From contig NZ_JAAFKD010000006.1 of the NCBI RefSeq assembly GCF_013299165.1, positions 124,001-188,000 of the forward strand: a stretch of 64,000 bases of DNA. The letters are read 5' to 3'. The notes under the pieces were generated by a model. That model saw nothing but the letters and a program-made list of their open reading frames with translations. It had not been told where the DNA came from and ran no database searches. Below, one piece after another: positions 49,805 to 59,912 of the stretch. The stretch is from Microcoleus sp. bin38.metabat.b11b12b14.051 (GTDB lineage Bacteria > Cyanobacteriota > Cyanobacteriia > Cyanobacteriales > Microcoleaceae). Both the position numbers and the translations under genes were made by a program. Within the stretch, counting starts at the first letter, position 1. The number at the start of each line of letters is the position of its first letter.

Positions 49805-50203
49805 ATGCCGAAGCCAGTAATTTTGTGCGTTGATGATGAAATGGTAATTTTAAACAGTTTGAAGATTCAACTCAAAAAGGAATTTGGCGATGATTACCTC
49901 TACGAAGTCGCAGAAAATGCCGAGGAAGCTCTAGAAATTATCGAGGAAATTCAAGCAGAAGAGGAAAGCGATATTTTGGTCATAGTATCTGACTGGTTAA
50001 TGCCTGGTCTTAAAGGAGATGAATTTTTGATTGGGGTTCACAAAAAATATCCTAAGATTGTGAAAGTCATGCTAACGGGGCAAGCCGACGAACTAGCAAT
50101 AGAACGGGTGAAACAGCAAGCCAACTTGCACCGCTGCTTGTACAAGCCGTGGGATGGCCAAGAATTAGTAGAAACGATAAAATCGGGTTTGGCAAAAATA
50201 TGA
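49805..50203 (+). CDS. Single-domain response regulator
   Basis: A 132-aa receiver with the acidic pair at CVDDE, phosphoacceptor D63 (IVSDWLMPG), LTGQADE and K-P-W (LYKPWDG) near the end. The LTGQAD/KPW pattern is that of receivers often coupled to HD-GYP or kinase outputs. A good AGGAGT Shine-Dalgarno site precedes the ATG. The stop overlaps the ATG of the following hybrid kinase, and the CBS-histidine kinase ends 65 bp upstream, so the three are likely one operon. Confidence 0.93.
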   Translation: MPKPVILCVDDEMVILNSLKIQLKKEFGDDYLYEVAENAEEALEIIEEIQAEEESDILVIVSDWLMPGLKGDEFLIGVHKKYPKIVKVMLTGQADELAIERVKQQANLHRCLYKPWDGQELVETIKSGLAKI

Positions 50204-53200
50204 GTAATAAACCTGTAATTATTTGCGTGGATGACGAACCGATCATCCTGGAAAGTTTGAAGATTGAGTTAAAAAAAGCCCTGGGTGAAGAACACTTATT
50301 AGAAACTGCTGAAGGCGGCGAAGATGCTTTAGAGTTAATCGATGAGTTGCTGGCGGAGGGCTGCGAAATCGTGGCGGTGATTTCCGACTATCTGATGCCT
50401 CATATTAGAGGCGACGAATTGCTGAAGGAGATTCACAGAATTTCGCCAAAAACTATCAAAATTATGCTGACTGGGCAAGCAGACCTCGAAGCGGTGGCAA
50501 ATACTATTAAATATGCTAAATTGTACCGCTACATATCGAAGCCTTGGCAGTCAGAAGATTTGAAATTGACTGTGAAAGAAGCTGTCAACAGTTATTTTAT
50601 GGAGAAGCAATTAGCGGAACAAAATGCTCAACTCCAAAACCTGAATCAAGAATTGGAAACTTTAGTTGAGGAACGGACTGCACAACTGCGTTTGTCTGAG
50701 GAAAAATTTGCTAAAGCTTTTCGTTCTTCTCCCAATCCGATTACTATTATCAGGCTTAAAGACGGTCGTTATTTAGAAGTTAATGAGGCTTTCTGCAAGA
50801 CAATCGGTTATTCGGCGCCAGAAATTCTCGATCGCACGGCGCTGGATCTGAATCTGTGGGAAAGCACGCCAGCCCGCACCAACTTGTTTGCAATGTTAGA
50901 CGAAAAAAAATTTGTTCGCAACTACGAATTTGATTGGCGCACTAAAACTGGGGAACTCAGAACCGGACTGCTGTCTGCTGAAATTATTGACATTCACGGC
51001 GAAACCTGCGTGATTTCGGTGATTCAAGATATTAGCGATCGCAAATTAGCTGAAGAAAAACTCCGGGCGGTAGCGGCTTCTTTAGCAGCAGCGCAAAGAA
51101 TCGCCCGCGTCGGTAATTGGGAATACGATTTCTCTGCCGATACAACTACTTGGTCGGAAGAATTATCTCATATTTTCGGTCTCGATGCCGCCCAGGCTGC
51201 GCCCACACTAACTGAGTTTCCGCAATACGTGCATCCCGACGACAGACAAAAATGGCAAACCGCGATCGACGCTGCTATTGCTAGCGGGCAATCCTACAGT
51301 TTAGAATATCGCATCCTGCGCCCGGAATCGACAATTGCCGCCGATAATTGCCCGTCACAGACAAGTGAAGGCGGCTTCATCCGTTACATCGAATCCAGAG
51401 GAGAAGCAGTTGTCAACGAGCAAGGGCAACTGATCAAACTGTTTACAACTTTGATGGATATTACGCCCCGCAAGCTGGCAGAAATAGGCTTAGCAGAGAG
51501 CGAAGAAAAATACCGCCATTTAGTGGAAACTTCTCAAGATATTATCTGGTCTTGCGATGCTGAGGGACACATTACTTTTATCAACCAAGCAGTAAAACAA
51601 ATCTACGGTTACGAACCTGAAGAAATGATCGGCTGTTCTTTTAGCGACTTTTTGGCGCCAGCACAAATAGACCACAACCTGGAACTTCAGCAGCGGTTGC
51701 TGACGGGAGATGCTGTGCTTCAGTACGAAAGTATCGTCTTAGGAAAAGACGGCCGACAGATTGATGTCAACACGAAGGCGATCGCGCGCTTGGACGCATT
51801 CGGAAATATTACCGTCACCACCGGCACAACTAGCGATATTACCGAGCGCAAACAAGCAGAGATCGCCCTGCAAAAAGCTAAAGAAGAAGCCGACAGAGCC
51901 AACAGGGCTAAAAGCGAATTTCTCTCGAACATGAGCCACGAATTGCGAACTCCCCTCAACGCAATTTTGGGTTTCAGTCAACTGTTGTCCCGCGACGCCG
52001 CCCAGGGTAGCGACCAACAGCAATATTTAGGAATCATTAGCCGTAGCGGGGAACATTTGCTCGATTTGATCAATAATATTCTGCAAATGTCAAAAATTGA
52101 AGTCGGGCTGGTGACACTGAATAACAGCACCTTCGACTTGCACAAAATGCTGATGAATACGGAAGATATGCTGAAGCTGCAAGCAGAAAAAAAAGGGTTG
52201 CAGTTAATTTTTGATGCCACTCCCGACGTACCTCAATATGTAGAAACAGACGAAAGCAAGTTACGTCAGGTATTGATTAATGTGGTGGGAAATGCAATTA
52301 AATTTACCGCGGAAGGCGGTGTAAATTTAAGAATAAAACATGAGCTGTTGGCAAACACAAAAAATCTCGACATTTCGCTGAGCGACACTTGCTGCTTGTT
52401 CTTTGAAGTTGAAGACACGGGGGCGGGAATTTTGCCGGAAGAAATGGACAATGTGTTTAAACCTTTTGCTCAGACAGAAATCGGGAGAAAAGCTCAAGAA
52501 GGAACTGGTTTAGGTTTGCCGATCAGCAAACAGTTTGTGCAGTTGATGGGAGGAGAAATGACTGTGACTAGCAGCGTCGGTAGCGGCAGCATTTTTAGAT
52601 TTGATGTGAAAGTTTCGCTCCCTAATGCACTGGAAATTCAGGTAGCTCAAACTGCTCGCCGCGTTGTGGGGATTGAGCCGGGACAGCCGGAATACCGCAT
52701 TTTAGCTGTGGACGATCGCCTGGAAAGCCGTTTGCTGTTGGTGAGAATGCTGTCATCCCTCGGTTTTGTGGTGCGAGAGGCCGAAAATGGCGTTGAAGCT
52801 TTGGAAATTTGGTCGAGTTGGGAACCTAATTTGATTTGGATGGATATGCGGATGCCGGTGATGGACGGCTATGAAGCTACTAAACGGATTAAAGCGCATT
52901 TGAAAGGTCAAGCAACGGTGATTATTGCTCTGACGGCGAGTGCTTTTGATGAGGAGCGATCGGTGATTTTGTCTGCTGGGTGCGATGATTTTGTCGCCAA
53001 GCCTTTTCGGGAACAAGTGATTCTCGAAAAGATCGCTAAGTATCTGGGAGTACGCTATGTTTACGATCGAGAAGCTTCACTGAGTTCTGATGCTGTAACG
53101 GACGGTGATGTTTCTGCGATCGCCCAAACGGCCCCTTTGCCTTTGATGCTGAATGCTTCATTTTTTGCAGCTATGCCGGCGCCATGGGTGGATGAGTTGT

Positions 53201-53358
53201 ACGCTGCGGCGGATGCGGTTGATAATGAGGAGATTTTTCGGCTGCTGTTGTCGATTTCTCCTGTGGATGCTGGTTTCCGCAGGGCGATCGCGGATTTGGT
53301 GAATAACTTTCGGTGCGATCGGATTATTGATTTGATTGAAGAGTTTAGAAATGTTTGA
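50200..53358 (+). CDS. Receiver-PAS3-hybrid histidine kinase-receiver
   Basis: A 1052-aa protein starting at the ATGA overlap with the previous gene. In order: receiver 1 (3-120; AVISDYLMP), coiled coil, three PAS domains (about 165-285, 298-425, 433-560), phosphoacceptor helix [18 protein letters not shown] with H580, ATPase domain (690-806; DTGAGI, GTGLGL), receiver 2 (830-950; IWMDMRMP). A helical C-terminal stretch of about 100 residues (MPAPWVDELYAAADAVDNEEIF) looks like a phosphotransfer domain but has no clear acceptor histidine. Receiver 1 and the lone upstream receiver are similar, so they may share a kinase. Confidence 0.92.
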   Translation: MSNKPVIICVDDEPIILESLKIELKKALGEEHLLETAEGGEDALELIDELLAEGCEIVAVISDYLMPHIRGDELLKEIHRISPKTIKIMLTGQADLEAVANTIKYAKLYRYISKPWQSEDLKLTVKEAVNSYFMEKQLAEQNAQLQNLNQELETLVEERTAQLRLSEEKFAKAFRSSPNPITIIRLKDGRYLEVNEAFCKTIGYSAPEILDRTALDLNLWESTPARTNLFAMLDEKKFVRNYEFDWRTKTGELRTGLLSAEIIDIHGETCVISVIQDISDRKLAEEKLRAVAASLAAAQRIARVGNWEYDFSADTTTWSEELSHIFGLDAAQAAPTLTEFPQYVHPDDRQKWQTAIDAAIASGQSYSLEYRILRPESTIAADNCPSQTSEGGFIRYIESRGEAVVNEQGQLIKLFTTLMDITPRKLAEIGLAESEEKYRHLVETSQDIIWSCDAEGHITFINQAVKQIYGYEPEEMIGCSFSDFLAPAQIDHNLELQQRLLTGDAVLQYESIVLGKDGRQIDVNTKAIARLDAFGNITVTTGTTSDITERKQAEIALQKAKEEADRANRAKSEFLSNMSHELRTPLNAILGFSQLLSRDAAQGSDQQQYLGIISRSGEHLLDLINNILQMSKIEVGLVTLNNSTFDLHKMLMNTEDMLKLQAEKKGLQLIFDATPDVPQYVETDESKLRQVLINVVGNAIKFTAEGGVNLRIKHELLANTKNLDISLSDTCCLFFEVEDTGAGILPEEMDNVFKPFAQTEIGRKAQEGTGLGLPISKQFVQLMGGEMTVTSSVGSGSIFRFDVKVSLPNALEIQVAQTARRVVGIEPGQPEYRILAVDDRLESRLLLVRMLSSLGFVVREAENGVEALEIWSSWEPNLIWMDMRMPVMDGYEATKRIKAHLKGQATVIIALTASAFDEERSVILSAGCDDFVAKPFREQVILEKIAKYLGVRYVYDREASLSSDAVTDGDVSAIAQTAPLPLMLNASFFAAMPAPWVDELYAAADAVDNEEIFRLLLSISPVDAGFRRAIADLVNNFRCDRIIDLIEEFRNV

Positions 53359-53487
53359 GAGAGTAGGGAGACGGGCGGGTAGGGGATGATTGATGCTTCA
53401 GCTCGATCGGCTGTTGGTAAATGCGCCTGCGGGCGATCGATTTATCCTGGATTATGATTGAAATCAGGACTTACCAAAGAACTGGGT

Positions 53488-53515
53488 AAAAGCCCCGTCT
53501 TTCAAGACGGCTTTT
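53488..53515. repeat. Left-end imperfect hairpin of the IS605-type element
   Basis: AAAAGCC-CC-GTCTT, loop TC, AAGAC-GGCTTTT. A subterminal hairpin with a bulge is the form recognised by Y1 transposases. Confidence 0.7.
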
Positions 53516-53913
53516 CTTGATTCTGGATATAGCGCTTGAGCACTTCTAGCGATGCACCTCCAACAGAAGTGGCAAAATAGCTTGGACTCCATAAAGCCTC
53601 TTTCCCGTAGGGCTTCGGGAAACCCCCTTGTCCGTATTTCCTGCTAGAAACGCCCTTAAGCGCATTCACTATGGCAGAAATAGATAGCTTGGGCGGATAT
53701 TCAATTAAAACGTGAATGTGGTCAGACTCCCCGTTAAACTCTCTCGATCTGAAAATTCATCTTCTGAGCCACATCCTTAAACGAAGTCTCAATCACCGCA
53801 AGGCTTTCGCTAGTGAGTACAGACCTACGGTACTTAGTCACGCAGACCAAGTGAATCTTTAAGTCGGTAACACTATGCCTTTCTTTTCGCAAAAATTTGT
53901 CATTTTGAGCCAA
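53502..53913 (-). pseudogene. tnpA: IS200-type Y1 transposase TnpA, frameshifted
   Basis: Reading leftwards from a TTG at 53913 gives RKERHSVTDLKIHLVCVTKYRR and continues to KMNFQIER. There a one-base shift near 53737 causes an early stop. In the next frame the protein continues NGESDHIHVLIEYPPKLS, ALKGVSSRKYG and EVLKRYIQNQEKP to a stop at 53502. HIH is the metal-binding HUH motif, and the Y of KRYIQNQ is the expected nucleophile. All catalytic parts are present but split between frames. A sequencing error cannot be excluded. It starts about 40 bp from the divergent tnpB. Confidence 0.88.
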
Positions 53914-53954
53914 CTAATATATGATCGAGTAACAGACCAATTATATATTAGAAA
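53914..53954. promoter_or_regulatory. Divergent tnpA/tnpB spacer with CTAATATAT palindrome
   Basis: The 41 bp between the two start codons carry CTAATATAT and its inverted copy ATATATTAG about 20 bp apart. AT-rich and symmetric, it is probably the shared promoter/operator. Confidence 0.45.
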
Positions 53955-53975
53955 GTGAAAGCTAGATACCAATTC
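53955..53975 (+). other. tnpB: tnpB exon 1 (seven codons)
   Basis: GTG then codons for K-A-R-Y-Q-F directly before the intron GTGCG boundary. Joined to exon 2 (R-F-Y-P-T...) this restores the usual TnpB N-terminus of the KARYxFRxYPT type. It overlaps no other gene. Confidence 0.75.
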
Positions 53976-56186
53976 GTGCGATTCGTTGATTAGTAAATCC
54001 CGGTAATCAGTCCGCAAATAACTAATCCAGTAAAACTTGACCCCTTGGTTAAGTGCTGAACTCTCAGATTGATGAAGGTGCAAGTCCTTCCCGCAAGATT
54101 CATGCGTGACTCCTGATCTGCCCACACCGACCAAGCTCAATTCTTGGAGAGTGAAGCTGGGAACAGGGCGCAATCAGACGGCTGTTATGGGCTGACACTG
54201 GCGCTAATAGGAAGTTCCTACGGTGAAACCGAGTCTAGAAAAGCAACCTATATCTAAGCAGGGCATAACGTAAAACCCTGACTTCATCAGAGATTAATCC
54301 CGCAGCATATGAATTGAATAGCTGCAAGAATCTAGGGAGTCTGATGGTTGAAGTGACTACACCTAACGGAACAATCAATCATCTGAGGGAACGAATAAAA
54401 ACGACCTGAGAGTCATGGACACGTCGATTTCCATGTAGGTAAGATGAGATACGGAACTCTCTCAAGTCGGGTAGGATGCAAAGTAATTTTTGCAAGGTAT
54501 TCAGAAAATATTCAACGGAGCAGAGCATGATTAGACACGGTGGCAACACCAGTGAATCTTGGAAAAATCTACCTTGGAAGAAATTCCGCAAAGATTTATT
54601 CCGCCTACAAAGAAGAATATTCAAAGCAGTTCGAGCAGGAGACAAGCGGAAAGCGAAGTTTTTGCAGAAGCTTATACTGAAGTCAAAAGCTGCTAGATTC
54701 TTAGCAATTCGACAAGTAACTCAGCTAAACGCGGGGAAAAGAACGGCAGGTATTGATGGTAAAAAATCCCTCGACTTTTTAGAAAGATTTCAATTAGAAA
54801 CCCTACTAAAAGACCACGCAGGAAATTGGAAAGATCAAGGATTAAGAGAAATTCCAATCCCCAAAAAGGACGGAACAACTCGAAAACTCAAAATACCCAC
54901 CATAGCGGATAGAGTTTGGCAGTGCCTAGCAAAATATGCTTTAGAACCCGCACATGAAGCAACTTTCCACAAAAGAAGCTATGGATTCAGAACAGGACGG
55001 TCAGCACACGATGCCCAACAATTCCTGTTCTCAAACCTAAACTCAAATGTAAATGGAATAGATAAAAGAGTCTTAGAACTCGATATCGAAAAATGCTTCG
55101 ATAGGATAAATCACACCGCCATAATGGATAGACTTATAGCTCCTAAGAGCATAAGACAAGGAATATTCCGATGTCTCAAAGCCGGAGTCAATCCAGAGTT
55201 TCCCGAACAAGGAACACCTCAAGGTGGTGTGGTGAGTCCTTTACTAGCAAACATCGCCTTAAACGGAATTGAAAGTATTCACAGATTCCATGTAAATGGA
55301 ACTAGGATTACCAGCAGAACCTCAGAGAGACACATTAATAGCCCTTCCGTTCGGTACGCCGACGATATGGTTATAATGCTACGACCTCAAGACGATGCAA
55401 ACGAGATACTTGAAAGAATTGACAAATTTCTAGCAGAAAGAGGAATGAAGATAAGTGAAAACAAAACCAAGATAACCGCTACGACAGATGGATTCGACTT
55501 TCTCGGCTGGCACTTCAAGGTGCTAAGCGATGGAAGATTTAAAAGTTACCCCTCAGTGGATAACTACAAAAAATTCCGTTTGAAGGTAAAGAACATCGTA
55601 AATTGCTCGAACTATGGTTCTAAGGTAAAAGCCGAAAAGCTAGCACCAATAGTTAGAGGATGGAGAAAGTACCATAGGTTCTGCGATATGTCAGGAGCAA
55701 GGTTTTCACTTTGGTTCCTAAACCACAGGGCGCACACGGTATTTAATAAGGAAACAAAGAACACCCGCGAATCAAGTCTAAAACTTGTCAAACAGGCTTT
55801 CCCAGCAATTCCTTACTCCGAAAACAAACACATCATGGTCAAAGGTGAAAAATCACCCTACGACGGAGATTTAACTTACTGGAGTGAACGCAATAGTAAG
55901 TTATACAATGGTATAACCTCTAAAGCTCTCAAAAAGCAAAACCATTCATGTGGTCATTGTGGAATGAAATTTATAAGTGATGAACCTGTACATCTTCACC
56001 ACATAGACAAAAATCATGATAACTGGAAGCCTAAAAATCTTCTAGCAATCCATGAAAGCTGTCACGACTATTTACACATGGGCAAAAGGGTAACTCCCTA
56101 AGAATATCGGGAGCCGTGTACACAGAAATGCGTACGCACGGTTCTAACAGAGAGGTGCTGGGGATAATACCCCACATCGACTCTAC
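53976..56186 (+). mobile_element. Group II intron inserted in tnpB
   Basis: The 5' end is GTGCG (consensus GUGYG). The 3' part has a canonical domain V at 56111-56145 (GAGCCGTG/CACGGTTC stem with the AGC triad) and a domain VI hairpin (GGTGCTGGGG/CCCCAC) ending in AC at 56186. The intron encodes a reverse transcriptase/maturase. It separates codon 7 of tnpB from the rest. A boundary uncertainty of 1 nt remains: in-frame joining needs exon 2 to start at 56188. The intron lies in the same orientation as tnpB and so can be spliced from its mRNA. Confidence 0.85.
54527..56101 (+). CDS. ltrA: Group II intron reverse transcriptase/maturase with HNH endonuclease
   Basis: About 524 aa from the ATG at 54527 (MIRHGGNTSESWKNL), with CGGAG just upstream. 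An ATG-less extension to 54476 is less likely. It shows RT blocks REIPIPKKDGTTRKLKIP, SYGFRTGRSAHDA, LELDIEKCFDRI, GTPQGGVVSPLLANI and the catalytic RYADDMVIM, then the maturase X region (LAPIVRGWRKYHRF) and a C-terminal HNH zinc nuclease (CGHCGMKF, HLHHIDKNHDNWKPKNL, CHDYLH). All key residues are present, so both splicing aid and retrohoming activity are plausible. Domain V follows 10 nt after the stop. Confidence 0.93.
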   Translation: MIRHGGNTSESWKNLPWKKFRKDLFRLQRRIFKAVRAGDKRKAKFLQKLILKSKAARFLAIRQVTQLNAGKRTAGIDGKKSLDFLERFQLETLLKDHAGNWKDQGLREIPIPKKDGTTRKLKIPTIADRVWQCLAKYALEPAHEATFHKRSYGFRTGRSAHDAQQFLFSNLNSNVNGIDKRVLELDIEKCFDRINHTAIMDRLIAPKSIRQGIFRCLKAGVNPEFPEQGTPQGGVVSPLLANIALNGIESIHRFHVNGTRITSRTSERHINSPSVRYADDMVIMLRPQDDANEILERIDKFLAERGMKISENKTKITATTDGFDFLGWHFKVLSDGRFKSYPSVDNYKKFRLKVKNIVNCSNYGSKVKAEKLAPIVRGWRKYHRFCDMSGARFSLWFLNHRAHTVFNKETKNTRESSLKLVKQAFPAIPYSENKHIMVKGEKSPYDGDLTYWSERNSKLYNGITSKALKKQNHSCGHCGMKFISDEPVHLHHIDKNHDNWKPKNLLAIHESCHDYLHMGKRVTP

Positions 56187-56187
56187 C

Positions 56188-57327
56188 CGCTTCTACCCCA
56201 CAATTCAACAACAACAAAGCCTAGCTCAATTGTTTGGATGCTGTCGGGTAGTTTGGAATGATGCGCTAGCGTTGTGTAAAAACTCGCTAAAGCTGCCTAG
56301 CAGTGGGGACTTGCAAAAACTATTCATCACCCAAGCAAAAAAGACCGAAGAGCGACACTGGTTGTCCGAAGTCTCAGCAATCCCATTGCAGCAGTCAATT
56401 GCTGACCTAGGGATTGCCTACAAAAACTTTTTCAACTCTCTCAAGGGAAAGCGAAAAGGAAAAAAACTAGGTAGCCCTAGGTTCAAGAAAAAGACCAGCC
56501 AGCAATCAGCAAGGCTGACTCGCGGCGGTTTTTCCATCAACAGAGAAACAGTCTACTTAGCTCATATTGGAAACGTAAATCCAATCTGGTCAAGGAGTCT
56601 GCCTTCGGAACCTAGTTCTGTAACTGTAGTTAAAGACTGTGCCAACCGCTATTTCTTGAGTTTTGTAGTTGATGTCGAACCAGTCAGTCTTGAAGCTAAG
56701 AACCAAAGTATTGGGATTGACTTGGGAATCAAGACTTTTGCTTTCATGAGCGATGGCACGAAAGCTGAAAGTCCAAGCTATGTGAAGCTTGACCGTAAAG
56801 TCAGGAAGCTGCAACGGAAACTAGCCCGACAAGAAAAAGATTCTAAACGTCGGCATAGAACCCGAATTAAAATAGCAAAAACGCATAACAAGATTGCGGA
56901 TACGCGCAAAGACTTTCTGCACAAGCTATCAACTAAGGTGGTAAGCGAAAACCAAGCCATCATTTTAGAAGACTTGAATGTGTCAGGAATGATGAAAAAC
57001 CGCAAACTTTCTAGAGCAATTAGCCTTCAAGGTTGGCGACAGTTTAGAGTATTTTGCTCCGTCAAGTCCGTCAAGTACGACAGAGAATTTGTTGTAATTA
57101 GCCGCTGGGAACCTACTAGCCAAGTGTGCTCTGAATGTGGATACAAGTGGGGCAAGCTAGACTTAAAAGTGCGGTCAGTGCAGTGCATAAATTGCGGGGC
57201 CACACACGACCGTGATCAGAATGCCGCAAAAAACATAAATAAAGTCGGGATGGGGAATCGCCACGACTCTAAATGCACGTCGAGACGGAAGAAGACTACT
57301 TCGGTAGCATCTGTCGATGAAGCGTGA
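56188..57327 (+). CDS. tnpB: TnpB RNA-guided nuclease, exon 2
   Basis: About 379 residues from RFYPTIQQQQSLAQLFGC to the stop; with exon 1 the spliced protein has about 386. RuvC residues are complete: GIDLGIKTFAF (D), IILEDLNVSGM (E) and HDRDQNAAKNI (D). A zinc ribbon CSECGYKWGK / CINCGATHDRD lies between the last two. TnpB proteins are RNA-guided DNA nucleases that use a guide RNA from the element's right end to keep copies in the genome. Unspliced, the frame runs back into the intron to about 56116, which would give a protein with a foreign N-terminus. Confidence 0.92.
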   Translation, partial: RFYPTIQQQQSLAQLFGCCRVVWNDALALCKNSLKLPSSGDLQKLFITQAKKTEERHWLSEVSAIPLQQSIADLGIAYKNFFNSLKGKRKGKKLGSPRFKKKTSQQSARLTRGGFSINRETVYLAHIGNVNPIWSRSLPSEPSSVTVVKDCANRYFLSFVVDVEPVSLEAKNQSIGIDLGIKTFAFMSDGTKAESPSYVKLDRKVRKLQRKLARQEKDSKRRHRTRIKIAKTHNKIADTRKDFLHKLSTKVVSENQAIILEDLNVSGMMKNRKLSRAISLQGWRQFRVFCSVKSVKYDREFVVISRWEPTSQVCSECGYKWGKLDLKVRSVQCINCGATHDRDQNAAKNINKVGMGNRHDSKCTSRRKKTTSVASVDEA

Positions 57328-57332
57328 AGAAT

Positions 57333-57353
57333 CCCCGTGCCTTTAGGCCGGGG
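57333..57353 (+). ncRNA. Right-end hairpin, likely part of the TnpB guide (omega) RNA
   Basis: CCCCG-t-GCCT, loop TT, AGGC-CGGGG, ten bases before the TCAA end of the element. In related elements the omega RNA covers the 3' end of tnpB and the right end and takes its guide from flanking DNA. The 5' limit cannot be set here. Confidence 0.5.
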
Positions 57354-57393
57354 AGTATTTCAAGAAGCAATAGTTTTTTATTCACTTATCGCC

Positions 57394-57727: not shown

Positions 57728-57974
57728 CATTATAGCCAATCTCAAATTTAAAAATGGAAAAATAGAAAATCTCAAATTCTTCATAAATCTCAGAAAGGCT
57801 ATAAATACTTAGTTAAGGCTCTCTCTGCGGGTAGATTAACTAGGCTTTTTGGGTTGGTATGCCTAAGTTATGTAAATATAAAAGTAGTTAATTTGGGAGC
57901 GAGTGCTATAATGACGATTTGACAGGTTTTTTCACAATTTCTGCAATTTCCCAGTTAACAAAAAACAGCTAGTG
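57728..57974. other. Intergenic leader of the 58-kb kinase operon
   Basis: Repeated CTCAAATTT/ATCTCAAATT segments, then an AT-rich stretch. TATAAT at 57907-57912 is a possible -10 element about 60 bp before the start codon, with only a weak -35 match. Confidence 0.4.
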
Positions 57975-59912
57975 ATGACCAGCAATCAAACAGAAGAGAA
58001 TAAGGGCAACATATTAATTGTTGACGACACTCCCGAAAATTTGCAAGTTTTATCAGCAACACTGTCGGATCGGGGTTACAAAATCCGGGGCGTAATTAAC
58101 GGCAAAATGGCAATCAGAGCCGCGCGATCGGGTTCTCCAGATTTGATTTTACTAGATATCAAAATGCCAGAAATGGACGGCTACGAAGTTTGCACGCAAC
58201 TCAAGGCAGATCCGAAAACATCAGAAATTCCAGTTATTTTCATCAGCGCTTTAGATGAAGTATTGGACAAAGTAACAGCCTTTCAAGTTGGAGGAGTAGA
58301 TTATGTCACAAAACCGTTTCATGTGGCAGAAGTTTTAGCGAGAATCGAACACCAACTGACTATCCAAAGACTGAAAAAAGAATTGATGGATCGCAATACC
58401 CAATTGCAAAAAGAAATCATTGAACGCAAAAAAGCCGAAGAAGTCGCAGCCGCTGCATCGCTGGCAAAAAGTCAATTTGTTGCCAACATGAGCCACGAAT
58501 TGCGGACTCCCTTGAACGCGATCCTCGGTTTTACCCAAGTCATGAGCCGCGACTCTTTGCTCAACAACGAAAATATCGAAAATCTCCGAATTATCAACCG
58601 CAGCGGTCAACATTTGCTGGAACTAATTAACGATGTTTTAGATTTGTCGAAAATAGAAGCAGGGATAATTGGGTTAGACGAACGCAGCTTTGACCTTTAT
58701 CAACTGCTCGATACTCTCGAAGAGATGTTTCAAATCAAAGCTGAAATTACAAATTTGCAACTGAGATTTTTCGTGCAGGCGAATGTTCCCCAATATATAA
58801 AAAATGACGAAAAAAAGCTGCGCGTCTGCTTGATTAACCTGCTGGCAAATGCCATAAAATTCACTCCTGAAGGCGGCAGCATTTGGTTGCGTGCGAGCCT
58901 TGAAAGCAACCAGCAGCAACATGAATCAGCAATCAATCTTAACTCAAGGTCACCTGAAGAATGTGGAATTATTTTTGAAGTTGAAGACACAGGAGTTGGC
59001 ATAGCAGCAGCAGAAATTGACAATTTATTTGATGCTTTTGTGCAAACAGAAGCTGGAAAAAAAGCGGCTGACGGTACGGGATTGGGTTTGACTATTACTA
59101 GAAAATACGTGCAGATAATGGGCGGAAATATTGGGGTGGAAAGTGTTTTAGATCAGGGGAGCAGTTTTAAATTTAATATTCGGGCATTTCCCGCTATTGA
59201 GTCTGAAATCAAAGTCACGACATTGCAGCGGGTAATTGGATTAGAAGCAGAGCAACCGGTTTATCGAATTTTAGCCGTTGACGACAACCAAGAAAATCGG
59301 CTGCTGCTAGTAAAAATGCTGCAACCAATTGGTTTTGAAGTCCTAGAAGCAGAAAACGGTCTCCAAGCTGTTGAACTGTGGGAAAGTTGGCAGCCTGATT
59401 TAATTTGGCTGGATACGCGAATGCCAGTAATGGACGGTTTGGAAGCTGTCAGACAAATTAGAGTTAAGGAGAAAGCAACTCAGGGCAGAACTGTAATTAT
59501 TGCTCTGACTGCTAGCACTTTTGAGGAAAGAAAAGGCGAAATTATTGCCGCAGGTTGCGACGATTTTGTGCGGAAACCTTTTCAAGAACAAATCCTGTTT
59601 GATAAGATGGCTTGTTATTTGGGAGTGCGCTATATTTGTGAACAATTACCGGGAGTCCCGGTGGGGGCTTTACGGCGTTATTTTGTGGCGGAAAAACCAG
59701 ATTCATTTTTTCTGTCGCTGCTGGCCGAGATGCCTCGATATTGGGTGCAGGAACTCTACGAGGCAGTTAATGATGTTAATGAAGAGCTGGCAATTGAAAT
59801 TGTCGATCGCATTTCTGAAACAAATCCAATTTTAGCTGATGCTTTAAAAGATTTGCTGGCAGATTACCGACTCGATAGGATTCTGGCTTTAACTCAATTA
59901 ATTTTAAAATAA
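57975..59912 (+). CDS. Receiver-histidine kinase-receiver hybrid
   Basis: A 645-aa protein from the ATG at 57975 (a GTG directly before is possible). Receiver 1 (about 10-130; LILLDIKMP), a coiled coil, phosphoacceptor helix [18 protein letters not shown] with H174, ATPase domain (276-409; DTGVGI, GTGLGL), receiver 2 (430-555; IWLDTRMPVMDG). A helical tail of about 85 residues (MPRYWVQELYEAVNDVNEEL) is similar to the tail of the 1052-aa kinase at 50.2 kb and lacks an obvious phospho-histidine. It directly abuts the next kinase gene (TAA followed by ATG), so they form an operon. Confidence 0.93.
   Translation: MTSNQTEENKGNILIVDDTPENLQVLSATLSDRGYKIRGVINGKMAIRAARSGSPDLILLDIKMPEMDGYEVCTQLKADPKTSEIPVIFISALDEVLDKVTAFQVGGVDYVTKPFHVAEVLARIEHQLTIQRLKKELMDRNTQLQKEIIERKKAEEVAAAASLAKSQFVANMSHELRTPLNAILGFTQVMSRDSLLNNENIENLRIINRSGQHLLELINDVLDLSKIEAGIIGLDERSFDLYQLLDTLEEMFQIKAEITNLQLRFFVQANVPQYIKNDEKKLRVCLINLLANAIKFTPEGGSIWLRASLESNQQQHESAINLNSRSPEECGIIFEVEDTGVGIAAAEIDNLFDAFVQTEAGKKAADGTGLGLTITRKYVQIMGGNIGVESVLDQGSSFKFNIRAFPAIESEIKVTTLQRVIGLEAEQPVYRILAVDDNQENRLLLVKMLQPIGFEVLEAENGLQAVELWESWQPDLIWLDTRMPVMDGLEAVRQIRVKEKATQGRTVIIALTASTFEERKGEIIAAGCDDFVRKPFQEQILFDKMACYLGVRYICEQLPGVPVGALRRYFVAEKPDSFFLSLLAEMPRYWVQELYEAVNDVNEELAIEIVDRISETNPILADALKDLLADYRLDRILALTQLILK

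What the first reader, a model, noticed from the sequence alone, without database searches (positions are those of the whole stretch)
53475..57363. Group II intron inserted at codon 7/8 of an IS605-type tnpB
Sequence shows GTG plus six codons (KARYQF), then a GTGCG intron start, an RT/maturase with intact YADD and HNH, domain V and VI, and then the rest of tnpB beginning RFYPT. One mobile element has entered another in the sense orientation. An active intron could remove itself from tnpB mRNA, keeping the RNA-guided nuclease functional, and the intron may gain copies through tnpB homing. In-frame joining needs a 1-nt shift from the usual AY 3' end, so splicing fidelity decides whether TnpB is made.
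Basis: partly seen in the sequence, partly recalled or inferred. Interest (0 to 1): 0.72.

Follow-up and report, generated by a model that had tools for sequence, protein, structure and literature searches.

The report
Self-splicing intron inside cyanobacterial tnpB gene
A mobile self-splicing RNA (a group II intron) sits inside the RNA-guided nuclease gene of a jumping gene in a cyanobacterium, at a position where removing it would rejoin the nuclease gene exactly in frame, and relatives of this intron have entered the same kind of gene at least nine other times at other sites.

Summary
An IS200/IS605-type element (53475-57363) carries a 2,212-base group II intron at 53976-56187, between codons 7 and 8 of tnpB. 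The intron has an intact RT/maturase/HNH protein, domain V and a bulged-A domain VI.

In 108 insertion sites of this cyanobacterial intron lineage the intron ends one base beyond the textbook AY (mostly ...ACC). Three lines show this: restored reading frames, covariation of EBS3 with the first base of exon 2, and intron-free tnpB homologues. Predicted splicing gives (M)KARYQF|RFYPT exactly in frame. EBS1, EBS2 and EBS3 pair perfectly with the exons.

Relatives of this intron occupy tnpB genes at about 10 different sites, all in sense, versus about 0.9 expected. They also sit in frame in cellular genes such as NAD kinase, CobO, RNase III and SSB.

Not supported: that the pair multiplies together. 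The composite is a single copy, seen in no other of 391 genomes searched, and its tnpA is frameshifted. Splicing itself is predicted, not shown.

Verdict: a real, well-resolved nested element of a known kind. The tnpB enrichment and the shifted 3' end are the new parts.

The parts
53475..57363 (+). IS200/IS605-type insertion sequence (inserted after TTAC, right end ...TTTCAA), 3,889 bp with the intron, 1,677 bp without
   Evidence: Alignment limits to intron-free L164 (G007) 53470-57363. The orthologous intergenic region lacks it in the same-genus relatives whose loci span both flanks
53505..53905 (-). tnpA (Y1/HUH IS200 transposase), broken by a frameshift; coordinates approximate
   Evidence: The HIH-proximal C-terminal half matches NCBIfam transpos_IS200; the two halves lie in different frames, whereas L164 has one open frame
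53955..53975 (+). tnpB exon 1: GTG AAA GCT AGA TAC CAA TTC (M/V-KARYQF); IBS2 at 53964-53968, IBS1 at 53970-53975
   Evidence: Homologous to the start codon and first codons of >20 intron-free tnpB genes
53976..56187 (+). Group II intron (IIB/CL-like, cyanobacterial lineage), GTGCGATTC...GACTCTACC, 2,212 nt
   Evidence: Rfam match; ends fixed by ORF restoration and EBS/IBS covariation and by BLAST ends
54251..54255 (+). EBS2 (UAUCU), 5/5 pairs with IBS2
   Evidence: Covariation over 65 introns
54311..54316 (+). EBS1 (GAAUUG), 6/6 pairs with IBS1 CAAUUC
   Evidence: Covariation over 65 introns: 355 of 390 pairs, best of 2000 shuffles 197
54353..54353 (+). EBS3 (G), pairs with first exon-2 base C
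   Evidence: 92% Watson-Crick versus 50% expected over 65 introns, only in the register ending at 56187
54476..56101 (+). Intron-encoded reverse transcriptase/maturase with HNH-type end, 541 aa, intact; YADD at 55355-55366, HHID at 55997-56008
   Evidence: Pfam and NCBIfam, motif positions, PDB relatives 6me0 and others
56107..56187 (+). Domains V and VI; unpaired branch-point A at 56180, 8th base from the intron 3' end
   Evidence: Rfam 56109-56186; RNA fold -34 kcal/mol, z -4.5
56188..57327 (+). tnpB exon 2 (RFYPT... to stop); RuvC D/E/D motifs (GIDLG, ILEDLN, DRDQNA) and CSECG zinc finger intact
   Evidence: Pfam OrfB_IS605, TNB, HTH; NCBIfam guided_TnpB; motifs

Best explanation
A mobile group II intron of a cyanobacterial lineage recognised a tnpB target (AGATA-C-CAATTC|C) by EBS2, EBS1 and EBS3 pairing and retrohomed in the sense orientation into codon 7/8 of the tnpB of a resident IS605-type element. 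The element's transcript carries the whole intron. With its own maturase the intron should splice as a lariat from A56180 and join codon 7 (TTC) to codon 8 (CGC) without any shift, giving full-length TnpB, an RNA-guided nuclease. Shown here: anatomy, intactness, exact boundaries, target pairing, an in-frame empty-site equivalent, and selective constraint on the joined tnpB compared with its nearest intron-free relative. Inferred: splicing, TnpB production, mobility. The lineage lands preferentially in sense within reading frames, and tnpB is over-represented, most likely because tnpB is common, dispensable and spread between genomes.
For: Intact IEP and ribozyme 3' domains. EBS1 6/6, EBS2 5/5, EBS3 G-C. 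Register ending at 56187 restores ORFs of >=40 aa on both sides at 29 of 108 sites versus 8-12 in neighbouring registers. Intron-free tnpB homologues with the exact junction; one (L176, G012) carries the same unoccupied GATACCAATTC|C. Joined tnpB versus L164: dN 0.079, dS 1.10. Lineage-wide sense bias: ORFs >=150 aa spanning the junction 42 sense, 5 antisense. tnpB hosts at 10 of 108 unique sites, all sense, versus about 0.9 expected.
Against: No RNA data. The intron may be so recent that intact ORFs say nothing about splicing. Unspliced exon 1 is read VKARYQFVRFVD and stops, so any splicing failure abolishes normal TnpB initiation. tnpA is frameshifted, so the IS itself may be immobile.
Confidence: 0.82

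Rival explanations
1. The intron ends at the canonical AY (56186); splicing there frameshifts tnpB and the gene is dead.
For: The Rfam model ends at 56186 with AC, and the AY rule is general (PMC4424553).
Against: In that register exon base +1 is C at 64 of 65 sites and covaries with nothing in domain I; one base later it varies (A 42, T 11, C 10, G 2) and pairs with EBS3 in 92%. ORFs are restored mainly in the later register. L002, L053, L055, L113 and many others join in frame only in the later register.
Confidence: 0.05
2. The intron is inserted but no longer splices; tnpB is a pseudogene that happens to be intact because the insertion is recent.
For: tnpA is already frameshifted; a single copy in one genome.
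Against: All recognisable parts of ribozyme and IEP are intact, exon pairings are perfect, and tnpB shows dN/dS about 0.07 against its closest intron-free relative, similar to the intron-free pair L164/L165 (0.067/0.71).
Confidence: 0.13
3. The composite is an IStron-like cooperative unit: IS transposition and TnpB cutting spread the intron, and splicing hides the insertion.
For: Same partners as IStrons in outline (ribozyme plus IS605 tnpB); tnpB enrichment of the lineage.
Against: Topology is reversed (intron inside tnpB; excision would not remove the IS from RNA), sites differ in every tnpB, the composite is single-copy and absent from 390 other genomes, and tnpA is broken.
Confidence: 0.05

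Closest known systems
Cyanobacterial group II introns of the IIB / CL2 type, e.g. the outer (host) intron of the Trichodesmium erythraeum twintron (PMC4649490)
   Same: 5' GUGCGAUUC, IIB features with EBS3, RT/maturase-encoding, in a protein-coding gene, spliced in vivo in Trichodesmium
   Different: In the homologous loci found here that intron ends ...TTTAAC; this lineage mostly ends GACTC(A/T)ACC, one base beyond AY. Host here is tnpB. CL2 class assignment of this IEP was not tested by phylogeny.
[quoted passage not shown]
   Same: Group II intron nested in another mobile element
   Different: Those use one conserved site as a route to proliferate; here every tnpB insertion is at a different site
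IStrons (group I intron + IS605/IS607, PMC4227781)
   Same: Ribozyme combined with a tnpB-bearing IS
   Different: Group I intron is fused to the IS and splicing hides the whole IS; here a group II intron lies inside tnpB and removes only itself
Bacillus cereus B.c.I4-type introns with shifted 3' splice site (described in PMC4424553, cited in PMC4227781)
   Same: 3' splice site downstream of the AY predicted at the end of domain VI
   Different: Shift of 50-70 nt through an added domain there, one base here

Membership tests
Mobile group II intron | 5' GUGYG start | tested here: met
   GTGCG at 53976; all 108 sites carry GTGCG(A/G)TTC, but that was the search criterion
Mobile group II intron | Domain V and domain VI with bulged branch-point A | tested here: met
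   Rfam RF00029 53.2 bits; fold
Mobile group II intron | 3' terminal AY | tested here: not met
   Ends ACC; in 84 of 108 lineage sites the last four bases are AACC, TACC or CACC, 20 end in AAC. A minor, lineage-wide departure
Mobile group II intron | EBS1/EBS2/EBS3 pair with exons | tested here: met
Mobile group II intron | Encoded RT with maturase domain and HNH endonuclease | tested here: met
   Pfam RVT_1, RVT_N, GIIM; YADD; HNH by motif only, no Pfam HNH hit
Mobile group II intron | Splices / retrohomes | not testable with these tools
   Needs RNA or mobility assay
IIB2 / CL2 class | IEP phylogeny and RNA class features | not tested
   Inferred from GUGCGAUUC, EBS3 and cyanobacterial distribution only
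IS200/IS605 element with TnpB | TnpB with RuvC D/E/D and zinc finger | tested here: met
IS200/IS605 element with TnpB | Intact Y1 transposase TnpA | tested here: not met
   Frameshifted; intact in L164
IStron | Group I intron fused to the IS so that splicing removes the whole IS from RNA | tested here: not met
   Group II, internal to tnpB

The most novel reading that the evidence does not exclude
A whole cyanobacterial group II intron lineage has a lasting association with tnpB genes, entering many of them in sense and keeping the RNA-guided nuclease functional by splicing. That would be a group II counterpart of IStrons in which TnpB production is gated by intron splicing.
Probability: 0.15. 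Interest if true: 0.65.

Novelty: new member of a known kind. Interest (0 to 1): 0.4.

Why it matters
It is a clean natural case of an RNA-guided nuclease gene whose product should depend on splicing of a self-splicing retroelement. The lineage analysis gives exact splice sites, guide pairings and over 100 natural targets, so intron boundaries in cyanobacterial genomes, which an AY-based model calls one base short, can be annotated correctly and broken-looking genes recognised as intact. The excess in tnpB can be tested as either tolerance or targeting.

Tried and rejected
The first boundary script failed on an alignment setting. Loci from the genome search are not strand-oriented, so several were first misread and redone. 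The Trichodesmium twintron was fetched as an experimental test of the ACC end; its spacing was wrong in the first pattern, and the corrected search showed a related but different end...TTTAAC, so it neither supports nor contradicts the ACC end. Literature searches for group II introns in tnpB found no earlier report in the open-licence library; most subscription papers are not covered. A viral-contig scan for the intron 5' end found nothing. Considered and rejected: translational frameshifting to rescue the AY splice (unnecessary), and a pre-existing frameshift in the target (intron-free homologues have no extra C).

Full report
Observation. The GTG start, KARYQF, GTGCG intron start, YADD/HNH-bearing maturase, domains V and VI and the rest of tnpB are all where stated. 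The genome is a 7.07 Mb filamentous cyanobacterium, probably Microcoleus or close to it (inference). The IS limits of 53475 and 57363 are matched by an intron-free relative of the entire element, L164 (81.6% over 1,685 bases), which aligns from 53470 (including TTAC) to 57363 with the intron left out. The same intergenic place lacks the IS in the same-genus relatives whose loci span both flanks, so the IS is a strain-specific insertion.

Exact intron ends. Group II intron relatives were collected from genome contigs and flanks examined. With the 5' end at GTGCG, neighbouring registers for the 3' end were compared. The register one base past the AY restored long reading frames far more often: 24 best cases versus 6 in the first set of 66, and 29 versus 8-12 sites with at least 40 aa open on both sides among 108 unique sites. 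An independent test used the intron's own targeting RNA. An unbiased scan of domain I found one place that pairs with the last six exon bases in nearly all introns (EBS1, 5.46 of 6 against 2.50 expected) and one that pairs with the preceding segment (EBS2). A single further base (intron position 378) pairs with the first base of exon 2 in 92% of introns against 50% expected, but only in the one-base-later register; in the AY register the base is an almost constant C with no partner. BLAST alignments to about half of the listed plasmid copies stop at exactly 56187. The lineage therefore ends mostly ...AACC or ...TACC, with some ...TAAC. The window intron is 53976-56187.

Consequence for tnpB. 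Joining 53975 to 56188 gives ...TAC CAA TTC | CGC TTC TAC..., KARYQF|RFYPT. More than 20 intron-free homologues in the genus run through this point without gap, and one (L176) carries the identical target GATACCAATTC|C. Joining at the AY would give a stop after 31 residues. Window EBS1 is 6/6, EBS2 5/5 and EBS3 matches. The joined TnpB keeps its RuvC residues and zinc finger, and against L164 shows dN 0.079 and dS 1.10, no looser than two intron-free copies compared with each other. tnpA, on the other strand, is frameshifted here and open in L164.

What the lineage does. Among 108 distinct sites, reading frames of at least 150 aa span the junction in sense at 42 and in antisense at 5. Hosts include NAD kinase, CobO, RNase III, SSB, a conjugative coupling protein and plasmid-type proteins. 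At 10 sites the host is tnpB, always in sense and always at a different position: window, L002, L043/L053, L055, L057, L062, L068, L113, L218, L242, with L127 as a further TnpB-like case judged by eye. Twenty of the genomes hold 895 TnpB matches in about 133 Mb, about 0.8% of sequence at an assumed 1.2 kb each, so about 0.9 tnpB hits would be expected; the binomial chance of 10 is about 2e-8, and about 3e-4 for 9 even at a 2% background. The sample is biased to relatives of this intron and the null ignores that tnpB is dispensable, so this shows enrichment, not targeting. Both copies of this lineage in the window's own genome with recognisable ends (window and L002) are in tnpB.

Mechanism. 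Sense bias plus in-frame junctions in essential-type genes implies that the lineage splices in vivo; that is the best indirect evidence that the window copy can do so too. Splicing, maturase help and TnpB production remain inferred. Spread of the composite as a unit is not supported: the codon 7/8 junction occurs in none of 390 other genomes searched.

Comparison and novelty. Group II introns in protein genes of cyanobacteria, and in other mobile DNA, are known (PMC4424553, PMC4649490, PMC2882425), as are group I-based IStrons with tnpB (PMC4227781). I found no report of group II introns recurrently splitting tnpB, but the library searched is partial. I file this as a new member of a known kind, with two lineage-level points for which I found no earlier report: the one-base-shifted 3' terminus (not searched for specifically in the literature) and the tnpB excess.

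Noticed in passing
L002 (own genome, contig C14:146193-148349): A second intron of the same lineage (69% protein, 75% DNA identity) splits another, unrelated tnpB near codon 257; it joins in frame, and its maturase reading has one internal stop.
   Followed up: yes
L056, L065, L095, L099: Introns of this lineage interrupt NAD kinase, CobO, RNase III and SSB genes in frame in Nostocales; such genes would look broken in automatic annotation.
   Followed up: partly
L072, L075, L076, L078: Four Nostoc loci carry introns at the same site of a DUF2839 gene, but the introns begin differently after the conserved start, suggesting repeated occupation of one site.
   Followed up: no
L051: An intron copy lies next to a tnpB end in sense and a tnpB in antisense on the other side.
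   Followed up: no
G000 contig C26:41689-43213: A third, more distant (51%) and decayed group II RT in the same genome; its ends were not resolved.
   Followed up: no
window 50149-53358 and 57972-59912: The composite lies between two response-regulator/histidine-kinase genes that share about 71-76% DNA identity in short parts and are neighbours across most of the genus.
   Followed up: no
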